Below are positions 6,042 to 57,066 of a DNA stretch of 64,000 nucleotides, one piece after another; within the stretch, counting starts at the first letter, position 1; each line of letters starts with the position of its first letter. This DNA comes from Arabidopsis thaliana (taxonomy: Eukaryota; Streptophyta; Magnoliopsida; Brassicales; Brassicaceae): positions 17,797,835-17,861,834 of the forward strand of contig NC_003076.8 of the NCBI RefSeq assembly GCF_000001735.4. The letters run 5' to 3'. The translations under genes and the position numbers were made by a program. Under the pieces are notes generated by a model. It saw nothing but the letters and a program-made list of their open reading frames with translations. It had not been told where the DNA came from and searched no databases.

Positions 6042-7593
6042 CGCTTCACGGTGAGAAGAAGTGAATCTGCGATGATGAGAGAGGAGGATAGCTTAAATTA
6101 GGTCTATGCGGGGTGAAAGAAGAAGAAGATGAGCGAGAAATCGAGAAGGAGAGACACTTACACTCGTCTTCTTCAAAAAGGGAACCCTAATTTCTAAAGC
6201 AGAAGCAGAACTGATAGAAGAAGGCAAGGACACTCCGGCGACTCTCGAGTATCCGGTTTCATGGCCCACCTTACGAAACCTTACAAAGTTACAATTAATT
6301 CACAAATATTATTGTTGGTATTAATTTAATATTAAAACAAATAAAAAACCCAAATTTTTTGCATCTAAAATGTTCAATCAAATAACAATTCCGGTTTGGT
6401 TTCGGTTCAATTATTTCGGTTTCGCTTTATTTGTTTAAACCATAAAACCAATTTGTAATTCAATTTAGTTAGGTCTCGACATAATAATCGAACCCTACGA
6501 ACCAACCCAAACCCGACCGAAAACCCTGATCCAAATCCAAAAATTTCAAATATTCAACGGGTCCTAAACTTCAAAACCCGAAAAACTCTAACCCAAACCC
6601 GATCTGAACAAATATCCAAACATACCTCAAATATTTGATATATTATTTATATTCATACTTAAATACAGAAAATATTTGGATATTTGGATATTTTAGTTAT
6701 TTTGTGTATTTTAGGTTACTTTGGATATATTAAAGTAAAACTATTCGTGTTGTTTTGAGAGTTTTTGAAATTTTCAAGTAATTTGATAAATTTACATACA
6801 AAATTTTGATATTTTAATATTTAAATAAACCTGAACTCGAACGGTTTAAAATTTTAAAATACCCGAACGGGTCTTAAACTTCTAAATCTGAAATACACAA
6901 ACTCGAAATATTCGATCCGAATACTGAACGCCCTTTAGTTTTAATTTGGTTTAAATGATATTCCGGTTTGGTTTGTTGTGGTTGTTGGTTTTAATTTCAC
7001 AGTTCAGCATTAGCAAACCTTAAATTTTATATTTTTAAACATCCTTTATTTCTAATTTCTAGATTTTTGCCTATGAAGATATCTTCAAAGTAATGTTTTA
7101 AGAAAATACCTCTTTAAGGACAAGAAAATCATATAAGGAACTTTGCTGAGGAGACATAGAAATAGTTATTTCTCGTTGTTGTAAGCGGTGGTTTAGGTGA
7201 CTCATTTTCGAAGTTAAAGCTCTCGTTAAATCTGTGTTGAAGCTTCATAATCTACTATGGTGTTCCCTCCAGATCACTTTTTATTACTCCAATACTCATT
7301 TTTGAGAGATTCACTGAAGATACTCTAACATACATACGTGTATCTGTAACGTAACGGGATTCAAATACCATTTTTTCTCTTTTTTTGTGTTATGTTGTAG
7401 GATCAAAAAAATTGTGACTTTTGTGTGGATTAACATTTGACAATAACGTTAGACGTATCCATTATTCATGTGTTAAAGTAAAATACTTATTCAATAAAAG
7501 TTAATATAATTCTAAATTTGTTTTATTTATCGAGTTAAATGAGTTAACTATAACATATATTACATATATGAAATCCTCTACAGCTGTTACACA
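6042..7593. other. CBP20 promoter and degenerate repeat DNA
   Basis: About 6042-6250 is the CBP20 leader and promoter on the minus strand. From about 6380 to 6980 the DNA is a degenerate patchwork of (A)CCCGAA-like and GGTTTGGTTT-like words. The 15-mer ATTCCGGTTTGGTTT occurs at 6388-6402 and again at 6960-6974 and brackets the patchwork, as old repetitive DNA often does. From 6980 to 7593 it is plain AT-rich sequence up to a LINE insertion. No gene is supported. Confidence 0.5.
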
Positions 7594-8124
7594 ACAATGT
7601 TCATCAATATCCAATGCTGCTATTCTTCTGAAATCTGGACATCAATCGCAAAGAATGTGTACAAAGATAGATTTTCCACAAAATGGTCTGCTGTGGTGAA
7701 TTACATATCTGATTCTCAGCCTGATCGCATCCAAAGTTTCTTATCCAGGTACACATTCCAAGTCTCTATTCATTCCATTTGGAGGGAGAGAAATTCTCGT
7801 CGTCACGGAGAGAAGTCACGTTCAGCTTCAAACCTCATCCGACAGATAGACAAGACTATTAGAAACCAGCTATCGACAATCAAAAAGAAAGGGGATCTTC
7901 GACTCGAGAAGGGGCTGCAAGTATGGTTTGACATGCGTCCATAGCATCCTCTAAGAAAGAAGACTCTGTTTTTGCTCTCTCAATTCTATTTACTCTGTTT
8001 TTGATCTAGCTCTATTTCTCTTATTATCAAAATATCAAAAAAGCTGATGTAAAAAGTATATTTTTTCTTTTAAATATAATTTGACATTTTATTCAAAAAA
8101 AAAAAAAAACAATGTTCATCAATA
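7594..8124 (+). mobile_element. 5'-truncated LINE (non-LTR) insertion with target-site duplication
   Basis: The 3' fragment of an L1-type plant LINE. The 16-base target-site duplication ACAATGTTCATCAATA is exact at 7594-7609 and 8109-8124. Between the copies lies about 500 bp ending in an A tract (about 8096-8108), as expected of target-primed reverse transcription. An open frame enters from the duplication and continues to a stop at 7942-7944. Its residues (SIWRERNSRRHGE, then a basic C-terminus ending VWFDMRP) match the zf-RVT C-terminus of Arabidopsis Ta11-like ORF2 proteins. The frame has no stops and the duplication is perfect, so the insertion should be young. The reverse transcriptase and endonuclease are absent, so it cannot move on its own. 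Confidence 0.9.
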
Positions 8125-8520
8125 AAGTTGATTGTTGTTGATTTCTTAAAACAGGAAATCAACGAAATCTCCCAAAGTAAATAAAATTGTGTATCAACCT
8201 GTATGCCATGTATCTAAATAACAAATCAAAATCTTTTAGCAATAGATTCAAAAAAAAAGAAAAAACTTTTTGCAATATGATATGTCATATAATGATAATT
8301 AAGTTGATACAAATTGGATTCTTAAAATAAACTGGATTCTTAAGCTGCTAACCATTTATTAAAAAAAGATATTGACACATTTACCTACTCACATATTATC
8401 AAACCATATATCTAAATCACCTACTACATATTTCATTCGAAACATTGTACATAAATATATCTCTATACAAAATTTAAATGACAACATTGTCAACATAGAA
8501 GTATAGAACCGTGGCTATTA

Positions 8521-51792: not shown

Positions 51793-52485
51793 TAACCAAG
51801 TGATAACTAAACTACTATGGTGTGTTATCGAACAAATCTGGTGTCTTATGTCGAGTAGGGACCGTGGGATTAGATGGACGATTCTCAAGATCGACGGCTG
51901 TAGGCAACAAATGGGAGAATGCGAAATTCCCTCATGGTCAGGATTTTTTAGAAATATATACATTAACGTTTTAAAACTTTGATAAAGAGACACGATAATG
52001 GATAAAAGTAGCATAGGGGGATTCTACACATAAACTTGCATGTTCTAAACAGAGAAAAAAAACAACATTCGAAGTTATCCTTCTATGATAGAAGTTCTAT
52101 CATCAAAAATTTATGAATTAAATGACATTTTTCTAGTGTTGGTTCAAGTATCTCGCTCTGGTTGCGCTTCCCAATTGTACACATGAAAAAGTGTTATGAT
52201 TACGATGTTATTATATGATTACGATGTTATTATTCTGCATTTGTTTCCCATAGGAAATAACCCGACTCTAGAGTATAAACGCTAAAGTACTAAACCGAAC
52301 CCAACCCAAAGTTTTAAAATATTCGAATGGGGTTTAGAAAACTAGAGTCCAACACAAACACAAACCGAATATTTGATCTCTCATGCTTAATTTTGATTGC
52401 AGGATATATATATGTAGGTTACTTTGGTTACTAGGAAAAGAAAAAAAAAAGTCATTGTACGTGAGCCAAAATGAAATTTCCATAA
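51793..52485. other. Intergenic spacer upstream of the LEA gene
   Basis: AT-rich spacer. The word ATGATTACGATGTTATTAT is repeated immediately in tandem near 52196-52232. A (A)n tract lies at 52438-52450. No gene is supported. Confidence 0.4.
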
Positions 52486-53146
52486 GGGTAATTTGCAGGC
52501 CACACCCTTTGACCATGTTTTATTTTCAAGGATTGGCAAAGTGAAAGGTGGTTTTCACGTTTTGTCTTTTCAGCTGAAATTTGACCATTTTGCCCTTACT
52601 GCTGCAGTAGAGAAACTGTTGAATGTACGGTTTATTTAGTCAGGTTTAGTTAGGTACACTATTCCGGTTTAGTTATAATATTATAAAATTATTGATAATA
52701 ATTGGTGAGTTAAAGATGAACCCAGGAACAAACATTAATTGCGAACAAACATTGATGCTCAAGAAGTGTTGATCTTTTTTATTTACGAAGTTTGGAGTCA
52801 AGATAAGCATTATCGTGTAAGTAATGAAGTTTTAAAGAATTTTTTTGTTATAACATACTATGATCTTCATTGTGTTCAAAATCAACTTTGTTTTTTATAG
52901 AAAAACCCAGAAATATTTTATTTTCAATTTTGTTGGTTGAAAATGATAAATGTGTAAATACTTATGTTTATAAGTGTGTATATCGAAATTCTATTTGTTT
53001 TTGTAGATATAATCATGTTTTCAGTTGCATTTACTCGGTTTCTCATGAATTTATGATGTTGTTGGGTAATGGATATTCCCGTATTTATTATGGTCGGTGA
53101 GGGGAGATGCAAAGAAGAAGAATAGAAATTTAAACTAAAGAAAGAC

Positions 53147-53893
53147 ATGTTTGGTCGCTGTGTACGTGTTACGGAAAACATGACGTACACGGAATTTGTA
53201 CGTACACTAAGCGAGGCTTTCAGTTTGAAGTCCACAGAGATCAATCCCATAATTAGTTACTGGATGCCCAGAGAGATGTTAGTGATGATAGATACTAAAC
53301 GCCCTCCTGTCTACATTGACAGTCAAGTGGAGTTGAATACGTTCTTTATGATTCGTGGTAGGTATCCTTCTCTCAACTTGTTTGTCTCTTTCATTACAAC
53401 CGTCAAGACACTCAGGAATAATGTCTCTAGGGCTCATGATGATGATGCTGAAAGTGACCGTGTTTCAAATGTTGATGAAAATAATGAGGCCGTAGATGAG
53501 CAAGACGACGTTGAAGACGATAAAACAGATGAGGATGAAGAGGAGGGGGACAACGAAGATGGTGATGGGTATGATGATTATCAGGGTGACGATGGATCTA
53601 TGGGGGGAAGTACCCTCGATCCTACTAATGATGGTAGTGAAAGTTGTGGCGAAGATTATGATTACGACAAGTGGAACGATGTAATTGTAGAAGAATATGG
53701 AATAGGGAATGTTGAGGAGAACGTCATTCTCACACCAGGGGAATTCAGTCGTCTGTTGGCAGAGTGTACGTACACAAGTCAGCGTGTACCTGGCGGAGAT
53801 AACATTTCTCACTCGGGTGACCGTACACCAGATGTGACTCCAAGAAGTATGTGTCAACATCGTTTGTACCAATGTACGTACACTATAGATTGA
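53147..53893 (+). CDS. MuDR-type transposase N-terminal-like ORF with acidic tail
   Basis: Uninterrupted 248-codon frame inside the MULE. Residues about 10-85 (YTEFVRTLSEAFSL, then ISYWMPREMLVMIDTKRPPVYIDS and LNTFFMIRGRYPSLNLFVSF) resemble the PB1-like N-terminal region found in Arabidopsis MuDR/VANDAL transposases before the zinc-finger and DDE domains, which are missing here. Residues about 95-170 are almost entirely Asp, Glu, Asn and Gly. The C-terminal quarter is unrecognised. Two TGTACGTACA palindromes lie within the frame and one overlaps its end, so the codons may be constrained by a DNA motif. It is either a truncated transposase or a small MULE accessory protein; expression is unproven. 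Confidence 0.55.
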   Translation: MFGRCVRVTENMTYTEFVRTLSEAFSLKSTEINPIISYWMPREMLVMIDTKRPPVYIDSQVELNTFFMIRGRYPSLNLFVSFITTVKTLRNNVSRAHDDDAESDRVSNVDENNEAVDEQDDVEDDKTDEDEEEGDNEDGDGYDDYQGDDGSMGGSTLDPTNDGSESCGEDYDYDKWNDVIVEEYGIGNVEENVILTPGEFSRLLAECTYTSQRVPGGDNISHSGDRTPDVTPRSMCQHRLYQCTYTID

Positions 53894-54207
53894 GAAGTGT
53901 TTTTAAGAACAGAAAATCATACAACAAACAATGTCTTATCTCAGTCACTGCCAATATTGGTTTAATATTGTATCAATAAATTTTTCTTAGTAAATTTAAT
54001 TCACAAACAAAGATGTACGTATATTATTACACATGTACATACATTAATTTACCAACAAAAATGTACGTACATTATTTCACCATCTATTTTTATTTAATTA
54101 TTATGTATATATTGAGATTATTGAGATATAAGAATACGTAATAAAATAGTTTGAGTTATTAGAAATCGTCCCATATACGTTCCAATAAATAATTTCGTGT
54201 ACGTACA
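53197..54207. repeat. Dispersed palindrome TGTACGTACA, five perfect copies
   Basis: Exact copies at 53197-53206, 53765-53774, 53873-53882, 54062-54071 and 54198-54207. Close variants occur near 53161, 53183, 54013 and 54222. All lie inside the MULE. This clustering of one 10-base palindrome within 1 kb looks like a set of protein-binding sites. Confidence 0.9.
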
Positions 54208-55076
54208 CTGTAAATTGAATATACGTACACAGAAAAAATTCGATGAAGGGTATAATTGTAATTTTCCAGTCATCTTCAACCTGTGTATCCTTTTCTACAA
54301 ACCTAATTTTGCGGCCGTCTTTATCAGTTTTCTCAAAATCTCATTTTTGTTTACGTTTTGATTACTATTTATAAATAAATCTTGTAAACCTAAAGTGTTT
54401 GAATCTATGAGCTATCTTTAGTTTAAAAAGCTAAAGTGTTTGAATCTATGAGCTTTTTTTTTTGCATTTTGTTCATCTCTGAAAACAAGAAATTTGTTCC
54501 TCAATTTTGGAGTTCAATGGAGAGATGTCAAAATATGAAGGAGTGAATAATGAATTTTGAACTTCTTTCTACTTCTCTCTCGAATTTCTCCGTCTCTTTC
54601 TCTTTTTCTTCTTCTTCGATTTCTTTGTTTCAGTTTTTTTTTTTTTTTTTTTCAAAACTGAACCACAAAATCTAAACCGAAATCAAGTGCTGTGTGGTTT
54701 GCTTGCTCCCATAAAGGGTATTTTGATCTGAAAACAACTGAAAAGACAAACGATGAAAACCATATCTCATTTTGACAAACCATGAGAGCAATTCTTTTTT
54801 CATCCACTTATGTGAAAATTTCTTTTTCCATAAAGCCACTAAGGAAATGGCAAATTTACTTCGTCTTTTTTTTTTTGGTGTGTATAACTCTTTTTTATTC
54901 AGTAGTTCCCTTATATAATTGAGTAAAAGTTAAAATCCAAGTAAAAAGATCCCTTACTTGGTAGACACGCGACTATCATTTTTTCCACACGTAAAAGGAA
55001 AAACATATTCAATGTTTTTACTTGATAAGAAAAAGAAAGAAAAAAACTTCTTCTACTTCGCCTTGGAAGCACAACA

Positions 55077-56687
55077 ATGGCGTCTCTTTTCGCAATCGGT
55101 TTCTCCAAATTTTCTCCACAACCCACTTCCGATTATTCCAAATTACTAAAAGTGTTTCATCCAAAACCCTATTCCTTGAAATTTCTATTTCTCAAAACCC
55201 TAAATCCTACTAGGTTTTTCAAAGTCAGAGCCAATGATGGAACCGAACCATCTGATAAACTTCAACAGTATTTCCAGAATCAAGATTACGATAAGAAATA
55301 CGGATTCCTTGAAAACATCGATTCCTTCACAATCCCTAAAGGTTTATCTGAAGAAACGATTCGCTTGATATCGAAGTTGAAAAAGGAACCAGCTTGGATT
55401 CTTGAGTATAGGCTCAAAGCTTATGCTAAGTTTCTAAAATTAGAAGAACCTAAATGGTCAGATAATAGGTACCCTTTGCTTGATCTCCAAGATATGTGTT
55501 TTTACTCTGCTCCTAAAAAGAAACCAACTTTGAATAGTTCAGATATAGCTGATGAAGCTGATGATCCTAAGCTTCTTGAGGAATTTGATAGATTAGATGT
55601 TCCTTTAACAAAGAAGAAGAAATGTTCACCTAAAGTTGCGGTTGATGCGGTTTATAATAGTGAATCGATAGCTATTACTAATAAGGAGCCTCTAGAGAAG
55701 TCAGGTGTGATCTTCTGTTCGATATCCGAAGCTATAAGGAAGTATCCGGATTTGATCAAGAAGTATTTAGGAAGAGTTGTGCCTAGTGATGATAACTACT
55801 ACGCGGCTTTGAATACCGCGGTTTTCAGCGATGGATCGTTCTGTTATATACCGAAAAACACTAGATGTCCGATGCCTCTTTCGAGTTATTTTCGGATGAA
55901 TTCTATTGAAAACACTGGTCAGTTTGAAAGAACTTTGATTGTTGCTGAGGAAGGTAGTTTTGTTGAGTATTCAGAAGGATGCACTGCTATTTCTCATGAC
56001 AAGAATCAGCTTCACGCTGCTGTTGTTGAGCTCTATTGCGCTGAAGGAGCGGAGATTAAGTACTCGACGGTGCAGAATTGATATGCAGGGGATGAACAAG
56101 GTAAAGGTGGGATTTACAATTTCGTCACAAAGCGTGGTCTCTGCGCTGGTGATCGTTCCAAGATCTCATGGACTCAAGTTGAGAAAGGGTTCGCGATAAC
56201 TTGGAAGTATCCAAGCGTGGTTTTAGAAGGAGATGATTCCGTTGGAGAGTTTTAATCCGTATCATTGACTAATAACTACCAGCAAGCTGATACATGGACC
56301 AATCCAGAGCTGAGAACGCTAGAAATACTTCGACTTGTGACTCGATGCTTATTGGTGACAATGCAGCCGCTAATACATATCCTTACATACAGGTACTTTG
56401 TATATGATCATCTAACCTTTTATTATAAGGTTATGATAAAAGCACCTCTAATGAAGATCTTATAACAGGTAAAGAATCCATCGGCGAGAATAGAGCATGA
56501 AGCAAGTACTTCAAAGATTGGAGAAGATCAGATTTTCTATTTTCAACAGAGAGGTATCGATCATGAGAGAGCATTAGCGGCAATGATCTCTGGATTTTGC
56601 AGAGATGTTTTCAACAAGTTGCCTAATGAATTTGGAGCCGAAGTTAACCAGCTTTTGAGCATTAAGCTTGAAGGATCAGTGGGTTAA
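55077..56687 (+). pseudogene. SUFB-like iron-sulfur scaffold gene, decayed paralogue
   Basis: Paralogue of plastid SUFB, the scaffold of the SUF Fe-S assembly complex (SUFB-SUFC-SUFD). A 334-codon frame (55077-56081) contains a plausible transit peptide and clear SUFB sequence: [20 protein letters not shown], the [10 protein letters not shown] and [20 protein letters not shown] blocks, and [10 protein letters not shown]. It stops at a TGA where SUFB has Trp in [14 protein letters not shown]. Beyond it the homology continues ([20 protein letters not shown]) but needs frame changes near 56190-56330, where a conserved segment also looks deleted (only the SVGEF and NNYQQADT words survive). A GT-AG intron (about 56389-56467) then leads to an intact end: [20 protein letters not shown], then [18 protein letters not shown] and stop. 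The full-length product cannot be made; a 334-aa N-terminal fragment is conceivable. Confidence 0.85.
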
Positions 56688-57066
56688 ACAAATCTCACAA
56701 TTACTTAACATTAAAGAAAGCTTTACTTGTGCCCAACAAACTGCTAACAATTTTAGGCTTTCAATAATTAATTTTGGCTTGAGAAAACTGATATATAAAC
56801 ACTTGAGAAAAAGCATATTCTCGATCAGAAAAGAGTCTCACGAATAATCAAAGATGCTACTGTTCTCTAATGCCGGAATATCAATGACCAAGCACCTACC
56901 ACAGTGATGACCTTTTAAGTTCAAAGAGTTAATTCAAAAACAACCAAGAAAGCATGAACCAACATTTTGGAACATAAATAGTCTATGAAAAAGTGAACAA
57001 GCTTTCGAACATTTTTTAAAAGTAACTCAAAACAACACGACTTGAAATATACCCATATCATCAAAA
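56688..57066. other. Convergent spacer between the SUFB-like copy and eIF3d
   Basis: 379 bases holding the 3' ends of two convergent units. No other feature is seen. Confidence 0.5.

What the first reader, a model, noticed from the sequence alone, without database searches (positions are those of the whole stretch)
53197..54207. Cluster of five perfect TGTACGTACA palindromes in a Mutator-like element
A 10-base palindrome should occur by chance about once per million bases, yet five exact copies and several variants lie in 1 kb, some inside coding sequence. Arabidopsis VANDAL MULEs are known to carry short motif arrays recognised by their own anti-silencing (VANC) proteins. This array could be such a recognition code, or the binding site of a host factor such as an SPL protein (GTAC core). 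It is the best candidate here for an under-described system.
Basis: partly seen in the sequence, partly recalled or inferred. Interest (0 to 1): 0.7.

Follow-up and report, generated by a model that had tools for sequence, protein, structure and literature searches.

The report
Transposon's palindromic anti-silencing motif array
A small Mutator-type transposon in thale cress carries copies of a short palindrome that marks a group of related transposons, most likely as the address read by a protein those transposons make to escape gene silencing; this is a further example of a known kind of system.

Summary
In detail: five exact TGTACGTACA lie at the stated positions (0.05 expected). They sit in a 2,339-bp non-autonomous Mutator-like element, window 52486-54824, bounded by a perfect 9-bp duplication. 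All 16 close copies examined carry 2-5 palindromes. An unbiased 8-mer count gives TACGTACA as the most over-represented word in a full-length partner (22 seen, 0.27 expected) and in a second related family (48 vs 0.64); stretches of two more distant relatives have none. Copies related to the second family carry 21-bp tandem arrays; of 27 genome-wide pairs with 1-30 bases between, 26 are 19-21 bp apart. Both families encode a MULE transposase, a DUF1985 protein matching solved VANC21, and an Ulp1 frame. This is the anatomy of a VANC target code, probably of the Ulp1-carrying (KIU) type. An SPL site is disfavoured: the base after CGTACA is C or T in 123 of 128 flanks, though in 11 of 16 in one further stretch. 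Binding and demethylation are untested. The kind is published; two text searches did not find this motif with these elements, but the key 2022 paper was not held.

The parts
52486..54824 (+). Non-autonomous VANDAL-type (non-TIR) Mutator-like element, 2,339 bp
   Evidence: 9-bp duplication TTTCCATAA on both sides; 14 of 16 close copies show the same left end, and 5 of 16 have an exact 9-bp duplication of their own
52477..52485 (.). Left target-site duplication TTTCCATAA
54825..54833 (.). Right target-site duplication TTTCCATAA
53126..53893 (+). Truncated transposase (VANA) N-terminal open frame, 255 codons; holds three of the five palindromes
   Evidence: DNA match to the start of the 994-aa transposase frame of L035; no Pfam family above cut-off on its own
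53197..53206 (.). Palindrome 1 TGTACGTACA
   Evidence: exact in 10 of 17 aligned copies, window included
53765..53774 (.). Palindrome 2 TGTACGTACA; in the full-length relative a 66-bp tandem duplication carries two copies in the matching stretch
   Evidence: exact in 15 of 17; L035 sites 1784 and 1850
53873..53882 (.). Palindrome 3 TGTACGTACA
   Evidence: exact in 13 of 17
54062..54071 (.). Palindrome 4 TGTACGTACA (non-coding)
   Evidence: exact in 10 of 17
54198..54207 (.). Palindrome 5 TGTACGTACA (non-coding)
   Evidence: exact in 14 of 17
54220..54229 (.). TATACGTACA, a half-degenerate unit 22 bp after palindrome 5, in the part of the element homologous to array-bearing relatives
   Evidence: TATACGTACA in 15 of 17 copies, the full palindrome in 2 of 17; spacing 22; homology of array loci L037-L039, L048-L050 to this part of the element

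Best explanation
[quoted passage not shown] The window element is a non-autonomous VANDAL-type MULE. Full-length relatives encode a transposase and a DUF1985 (VANC-like) protein, with an Ulp1 frame on the same strand. The DUF1985 protein is inferred to bind TGTACGTACAY, probably as a symmetric dimer, at many sites within its own clade of elements, often two helical turns apart, and thereby to remove DNA methylation from them. The non-autonomous copy would ride along because it kept the code. Shown: clade-specific enrichment, arrays, spacing, presence in all close copies examined, gene content and homology to VANC21. Inferred: binding, dimerisation, demethylation.
For: TACGTACA is the top 8-mer in a full-length element (22 vs 0.27) and in two stretches of a second family (48 vs 0.64; 26 vs 0.46), and 0 in stretches of two ~40% relatives. 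The same count on the VANDAL21 region puts the known VANC21 word AGTATTAC third of all words (9 vs 0.30). 38 of the first 50 listed genome places lie in six clusters. Of 27 pairs with 1-30 bases between, 26 are 19-21 bp apart, with two unlike spacer sequences; reversed-pattern control 0. 21-bp tandem arrays with differing unit numbers occur at about 13 loci (my tally). DUF1985 proteins of the two families are 60% identical and match solved VANC21 with E 2.8e-12 and 7.4e-11. MULE, DUF1985 and Peptidase_C48 in both families. Published systems have the same layout: VANC21 YAGTATTAY and VANC6 AGTTGTCC/AGTTGTAC.
Against: No binding or methylation data. Three of the five window sites are in a transposase reading frame, whereas VANC21 sites are mainly non-coding. 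The motif is palindromic; VANC21 sites are directional. The VANDAL6 control region held its published words 6 times but not among the top words. One longer relative, L022, has no exact palindrome in the 4.1 kb fetched. CpGs in the motif are not kept better than other CpGs in the copies (0.857 vs 0.776, permutation p 0.30), and whole-site retention is only modestly higher (0.74 vs 0.52, p 0.026; p 0.06 within 53100-54240). No DUF287, a domain of VANC21, was found in the elements examined. The close pairs are largely copies of two sequences, so they are not independent events. One further DUF1985 family read (L055, 5 kb) showed no array word.
Confidence: 0.7

Rival explanations
1. The palindromes are sites of a host transcription factor (SPL with GTAC core, or a bZIP or NAC factor reading ACGT/CGT; the latter two from recall) that the transposons use as an enhancer.
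For: TACGTACA fits TNCGTACA of the SBP site TNCGTACAA on both strands; GTAC core is present (consensus from a passage of PMC10796333). Two of the four isolated genome sites fetched have A on one side (L001, L003). In the second family A follows in 3 of 30 and 4 of 16 flanks.
Against: In the elements pooled the next base is C 74, T 49, A 5 of 128 flanks (array units repeat each other; the stretch L042+L043, with 11 of 16 C or T, was not in that pool). Family A alone: 16 of 16 C or T, and 0 CGTACAA. Not found in stretches of two relatives. Spacing 19-21 bp in 26 of 27 close pairs.
Confidence: 0.15
2. The palindromes are binding sites of the element's own transposase, like the subterminal repeats bound by Spm TnpA (that comparison from recall).
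For: The motif is shared by elements that share a transposase family.
Against: Sites start 711 bp from the left end and stop 617 bp from the right end of the window element, and are spread through the interior of the long element, not concentrated at the ends.
Confidence: 0.07
3. Neutral minisatellite expansion: the motif is repeated only because short tandem repeats expand by slippage.
For: 21-bp arrays are clearly tandem duplications, and a 66-bp tandem duplication carries two sites in the transposase frame. CpG retention shows no sign of selection.
Against: The five window sites lie in unlike flanks, and the sites of the full-length element are dispersed; two unlike spacers give nearly the same spacing; two families that differ by 40% in their DUF1985 protein keep the same word.
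Confidence: 0.08

Closest known systems
VANC21 / VANDAL21 (Hiun) anti-silencing system
   Same: MULE with a DUF1985 protein; short motif repeated, tandem repeats that gain and lose units; protein homologous over about 200 residues
   Different: Motif YAGTATTAY is not palindromic and is arrayed in one orientation (PMC5735166); protein has DUF287, not found here; 23-25% identical in the DUF1985 frame
VANC6 / VANDAL6, 7, 8, 17 and AT9TSD1
   Same: Same layout; motif AGTTGTAC shares GTAC with half of the palindrome
   Different: Motifs AGTTGTCC/AGTTGTAC are absent from the family A element and occur once on each strand in one family B stretch; DUF1985 frame 26-28% identical
KIU (Kaonashi) VANDALs, VANC genes with an Ulp1 domain
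   Same: DUF1985 and Peptidase_C48 frames in a MULE; a 2026 review says that KIU elements recognise specific motifs in other KIU elements (passage of PMC13317346)
   Different: Their published motifs (Sasaki et al. 2022) could not be read, so it is open whether TGTACGTACA is already among them
SPL (SBP-domain) sites
   Same: GTAC core, TNCGTACA
   Different: Following base is mostly a pyrimidine, not A

Membership tests
VANDAL-type (non-TIR) MULE | 9-bp target-site duplication (feature from recall) | tested here: met
   TTTCCATAA at 52477-52485 and 54825-54833; exact 9-bp duplications in 5 of 16 close copies
VANDAL-type (non-TIR) MULE | Degenerated terminal inverted repeats (passage of PMC10398659) | tested here: met
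   Ends GGGTAATTTGC and GAAAATTTCTT do not pair by eye; in the full-length element the best inverted match at the ends is 40 bp, 82%, and lies inside them
VANDAL-type (non-TIR) MULE | MULE transposase in an autonomous-looking relative | tested here: met
   994-aa frame with PF10551, SWIM and PF00872
VANC anti-silencing system | Relatives encode a DUF1985 protein homologous to VANC21 | tested here: met
   PF09331; PDB 9lnj VANC21, E 2.8e-12 and 7.4e-11
VANC anti-silencing system | Private short motif at high density, in tandem repeats | tested here: met
   privacy tested against two relatives, the VANDAL21 and VANDAL6 regions and L055 only
VANC anti-silencing system | Sites mainly in non-coding regions | tested here: inconclusive
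   Window: 2 of 5 non-coding. Full-length element: 11 of 14 half-site centres lie outside the transposase, DUF223, DUF1985 and C48 frames (positions, frames, tally mine); three of those 11 lie in other long open frames, and exon borders are not known
VANC21/VANC6 subtype | DUF287 domain | tested here: not met
   None of 51 DUF287 matches in the genome lies in the stretches of family A and B read here
KIU (Ulp1-carrying VANC) subtype | DUF1985 and Ulp1 C48 domain in the same gene | tested here: inconclusive
   Family A: both frames on one strand about 3 kb apart. Family B: C48 frame in the C2 copy; the C5 copy appears to lack that stretch (alignment pieces). Splicing not shown
VANC anti-silencing system | Protein binds the motif and removes methylation | not testable with these tools
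   No binding or methylation data at hand
SPL (SBP) binding site | TNCGTACAA, A after CGTACA | tested here: not met
   A in 5 of 128 pooled flanks; 1 of 10 in the window element, 0 of 16 in family A, 3 of 30 and 4 of 16 in family B

The most novel reading that the evidence does not exclude
A VANC code of a different geometry: a perfect dyad (RTGTACGTACAY) read two-fold symmetrically by an Ulp1-type VANC, with sites set two helical turns apart, kept by two families whose DUF1985 proteins are only 60% identical, while a relative at 36-39% has none of it and carries another enriched word.
Probability: 0.45. Interest if true: 0.5.

Novelty: new member of a known kind. Interest (0 to 1): 0.36.

Why it matters
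It names a concrete target sequence and a concrete candidate protein (DUF1985/Ulp1) for a clade of Arabidopsis transposons, so that specificity switching between VANC proteins can be tested directly, with a solved VANC21 structure as template. A palindromic, CpG-containing site would also let one ask whether such a protein binds methylated DNA. As a kind of system it is already known.

Tried and rejected
Pfam on the window's 255-codon frame gave nothing above cut-off; its identity came from DNA homology to the full-length element. A text search for TGTACGTACA gave 8 papers, none on plant transposons by title, none opened; TACGTAC with VANDAL and transposon gave 0. A search for a VANC21 structure paper showed nothing relevant in the 10 titles listed. 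The reversed-pattern control (408 vs 494) is weak evidence for enrichment; ACATGCATGT may not be a neutral word (it contains CATGCATG, an RY-type element; recalled). The 12-base pattern (142 vs 35), paired patterns (44/46 vs 2/2; 27 vs 0) and clustering are clearer. CpG retention as a test of selection gave no difference. The VANDAL6 region as second positive control was not recovered at the top of the word list (only part of the element may be in the stretch). A third DUF1985 family (L055, 5 kb) showed no array word. I did not fold the DUF1985 proteins: the folding tool's stated sources do not list loci of the kind I held.

Slips: my script counted the exact word ten times over; '640' stands for 64 exact sites (8+15+36+5) against about 0.07 expected. 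The 128 flanks left out the stretch L042+L043; its 16 flanks (C 7, T 4, A 4, G 1) were added. differ by one in some site counts because they treat alignment gaps differently; one search set aside copies with more than three gaps at a site.

Full report
What is there. The five palindromes are real and at the given places. The window lies in a 119.7-Mb plant genome, C5:17797835-17861834; chromosome lengths and gene content point to Arabidopsis thaliana (inference). The palindromes sit in an element of 2,339 bp, window 52486-54824, flanked by the perfect 9-bp repeat TTTCCATAA. Of 16 other close copies, 14 show the same left end and 5 (L010, L011, L015, L016, L021) have an exact 9-bp duplication of their own. 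The element is non-autonomous: it keeps only a 255-codon frame matching the start of a MULE transposase gene.

Relatives. A DNA search with window 52400-54700 gave 119 matching pieces (40 of 99 first-look candidates scored, so a lower bound). Loci L006-L021 (16 loci) are close copies, 77-96% alike by piece, and all 16 carry 2 to 5 exact palindromes. L022-L034 (13 loci) match the first part of the element at 78-82% and belong to longer elements; I left them out of the copy alignment. In the 4 kb fetched for each, L022 has no exact palindrome and the other 12 have 1 to 3. One long element (family A) was read in full, C1:9004500-9017500 (L035+L036): a 994-aa transposase frame (MULE, SWIM, Transposase_mut), a DUF223 frame, and on the other strand a DUF1985 frame and an Ulp1 (Peptidase_C48) frame. 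The 13.0 kb hold 8 exact palindromes and none of the published VANC21 or VANC6 words. A second family, B (transposase 60-75% identical by piece), was read at C5:10432500-10450000 and C2:1998000-2011000; their main aligned pieces are 94-97% alike. Family B has a MULE transposase and a DUF1985 frame and, in the C2 copy, a C48 frame; the C5 copy seems to lack that stretch.

Is the motif special. A plain count of all 8-mers against a dinucleotide expectation puts TACGTACA first in all three long stretches: 22 vs 0.27, 48 vs 0.64, 26 vs 0.46. In stretches of 15 and 14 kb from two more distant relatives (transposase about 40% identical) there are none; one of them, O1, has a different enriched word, TATGGAGA (12 vs 0.61), often within CCATATGGAG. 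The DUF1985 region of the other, O2, was not fetched. As a positive control the same count on the VANDAL21 (Hiun) region puts the known VANC21 word AGTATTAC third (9 vs 0.30); on a VANDAL6 region the known words were present 6 times but not on top. Of the first 50 genome places listed, 12 are isolated and 38 lie in six clusters (my tally; 494 in all, reversed word 408).

Arrays and spacing. The motif forms tandem arrays with a 21-bp unit, GTGTACGTACACATTACTACC, at about 13 loci with different unit numbers (my tally). Six of these were fetched (L037-L039, L048-L050); all six match family B best and also match the 3' non-coding part of the window element. Among all 27 pairs of exact palindromes with 1-30 bases between them, 16 are 21 bp apart, 9 are 20, one 19 and one 32; the 20- and 21-bp pairs have unlike spacers, but within each type they are mostly copies of one another. 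The window element has a weak form: TGTACGTACA at 54198 and TATACGTACA 22 bp further on. Single-base variants seen in the pooled elements are mainly TATACGTACA (28), TGTACATACA (11) and TGTACGTAAA (10) against 64 exact.

Who reads it. The DUF1985 proteins of the two motif-bearing families are 60% identical. With family A's protein VANC21 (9lnj, 9lnk) is the one PDB match up to E 0.01, E 2.8e-12; with family B's it is E 7.4e-11, the only other match up to E 1 being an unrelated invertase at 0.57. Identity of A and B to the DUF1985 protein of the motif-free relative O1 is 36-39%, and to VANDAL21 and VANDAL6 23-28%; VANDAL21 and VANDAL6, which have different published motifs, are 42% identical to each other. 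So in these five families the motif is the same at 60% and differs at 42% or less; a sixth, L055 (32-33% to A and B), shows no array word in 5 kb. No DUF287 match lies in the A and B stretches. I read in Hosaka et al. 2017 (PMC5735166, parts 1-3 of 6 of the text) that VANC21 binds YAGTATTAY in non-coding tandem repeats and that VANC6 targets carry AGTTGTCC/AGTTGTAC; in passages of PMC10398659 that VANC and RdDM act on the same non-coding regions and that VANDALs have degenerated TIRs; and in passages of a 2026 review (PMC13317346) that VANC genes with an Ulp1 domain (KIU) also recognise specific motifs in their own group. From recall only, not seen: the abstract of Sasaki et al. 2022 speaks of at least ten VANC systems and of helical periodicity of motifs.

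SPL alternative. TNCGTACAA is the SBP site (passage of PMC10796333). The palindrome fits all but the last base: in the pool that base is C or T in 123 of 128 flanks and A in 5 (array units are not independent). Separately: window element 9 of 10 C or T; family A 16 of 16; family B 27 of 30 and, in the C2 stretch left out of the pool, 11 of 16 with A in 4 and G in 1. ACGTACAA occurs 9 and 7 times in the two family B stretches, so some full SPL-like sites exist there.

Selection. Across 17 aligned copies, window included, the five sites are exact in 10, 15, 13, 10 and 14. Whole 10-mers at the motif are kept in 74% of comparable copies against 52% for 53 other CpG-centred 10-mers (permutation p 0.026, or 0.06 against the 34 in the same stretch); their CpGs alone are not kept better (p 0.30). 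This is weak support at best.

Verdict. The motif is most likely the address of a VANC-type anti-silencing system, probably of the KIU subtype, with a palindromic site. The kind is known; this motif may or may not already be in print.

Noticed in passing
window 55029-56700: SufB/SufD-like gene copy just right of the element: frame 55029-56081 matches SufBD_N and SUFBD_core, then a stop, with similar-looking coding sequence continuing beyond it (by eye); looks like a broken or retro-copied gene. It lies outside the transposon.
   Followed up: no
L044+L045, positions 7178-8507 (C1:12.82 Mb): A ~40% related MULE lacks TACGTACA but has five copies of TATCCATATGGAGATG about 310-360 bp apart, a candidate code of another DUF1985 family.
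   Followed up: partly
L008 and L017 (C2:7287842-7296025): Two copies of the window's element lie in opposite orientation within about 2 kb of each other.
   Followed up: no
L035 1784-1860: 66-bp tandem duplication inside the transposase frame, each unit with one palindrome (LLETCTYTG...).
   Followed up: partly
L054 2466-2708: Short minisatellite (unit near GATGGTGAAGGTGGACC) downstream of the DUF1985 frame of the second family.
   Followed up: no
window 52455-52465: TTGTACGTGAG, a look-alike half site, lies in host DNA about 20 bp left of the element; probably chance.
   Followed up: no
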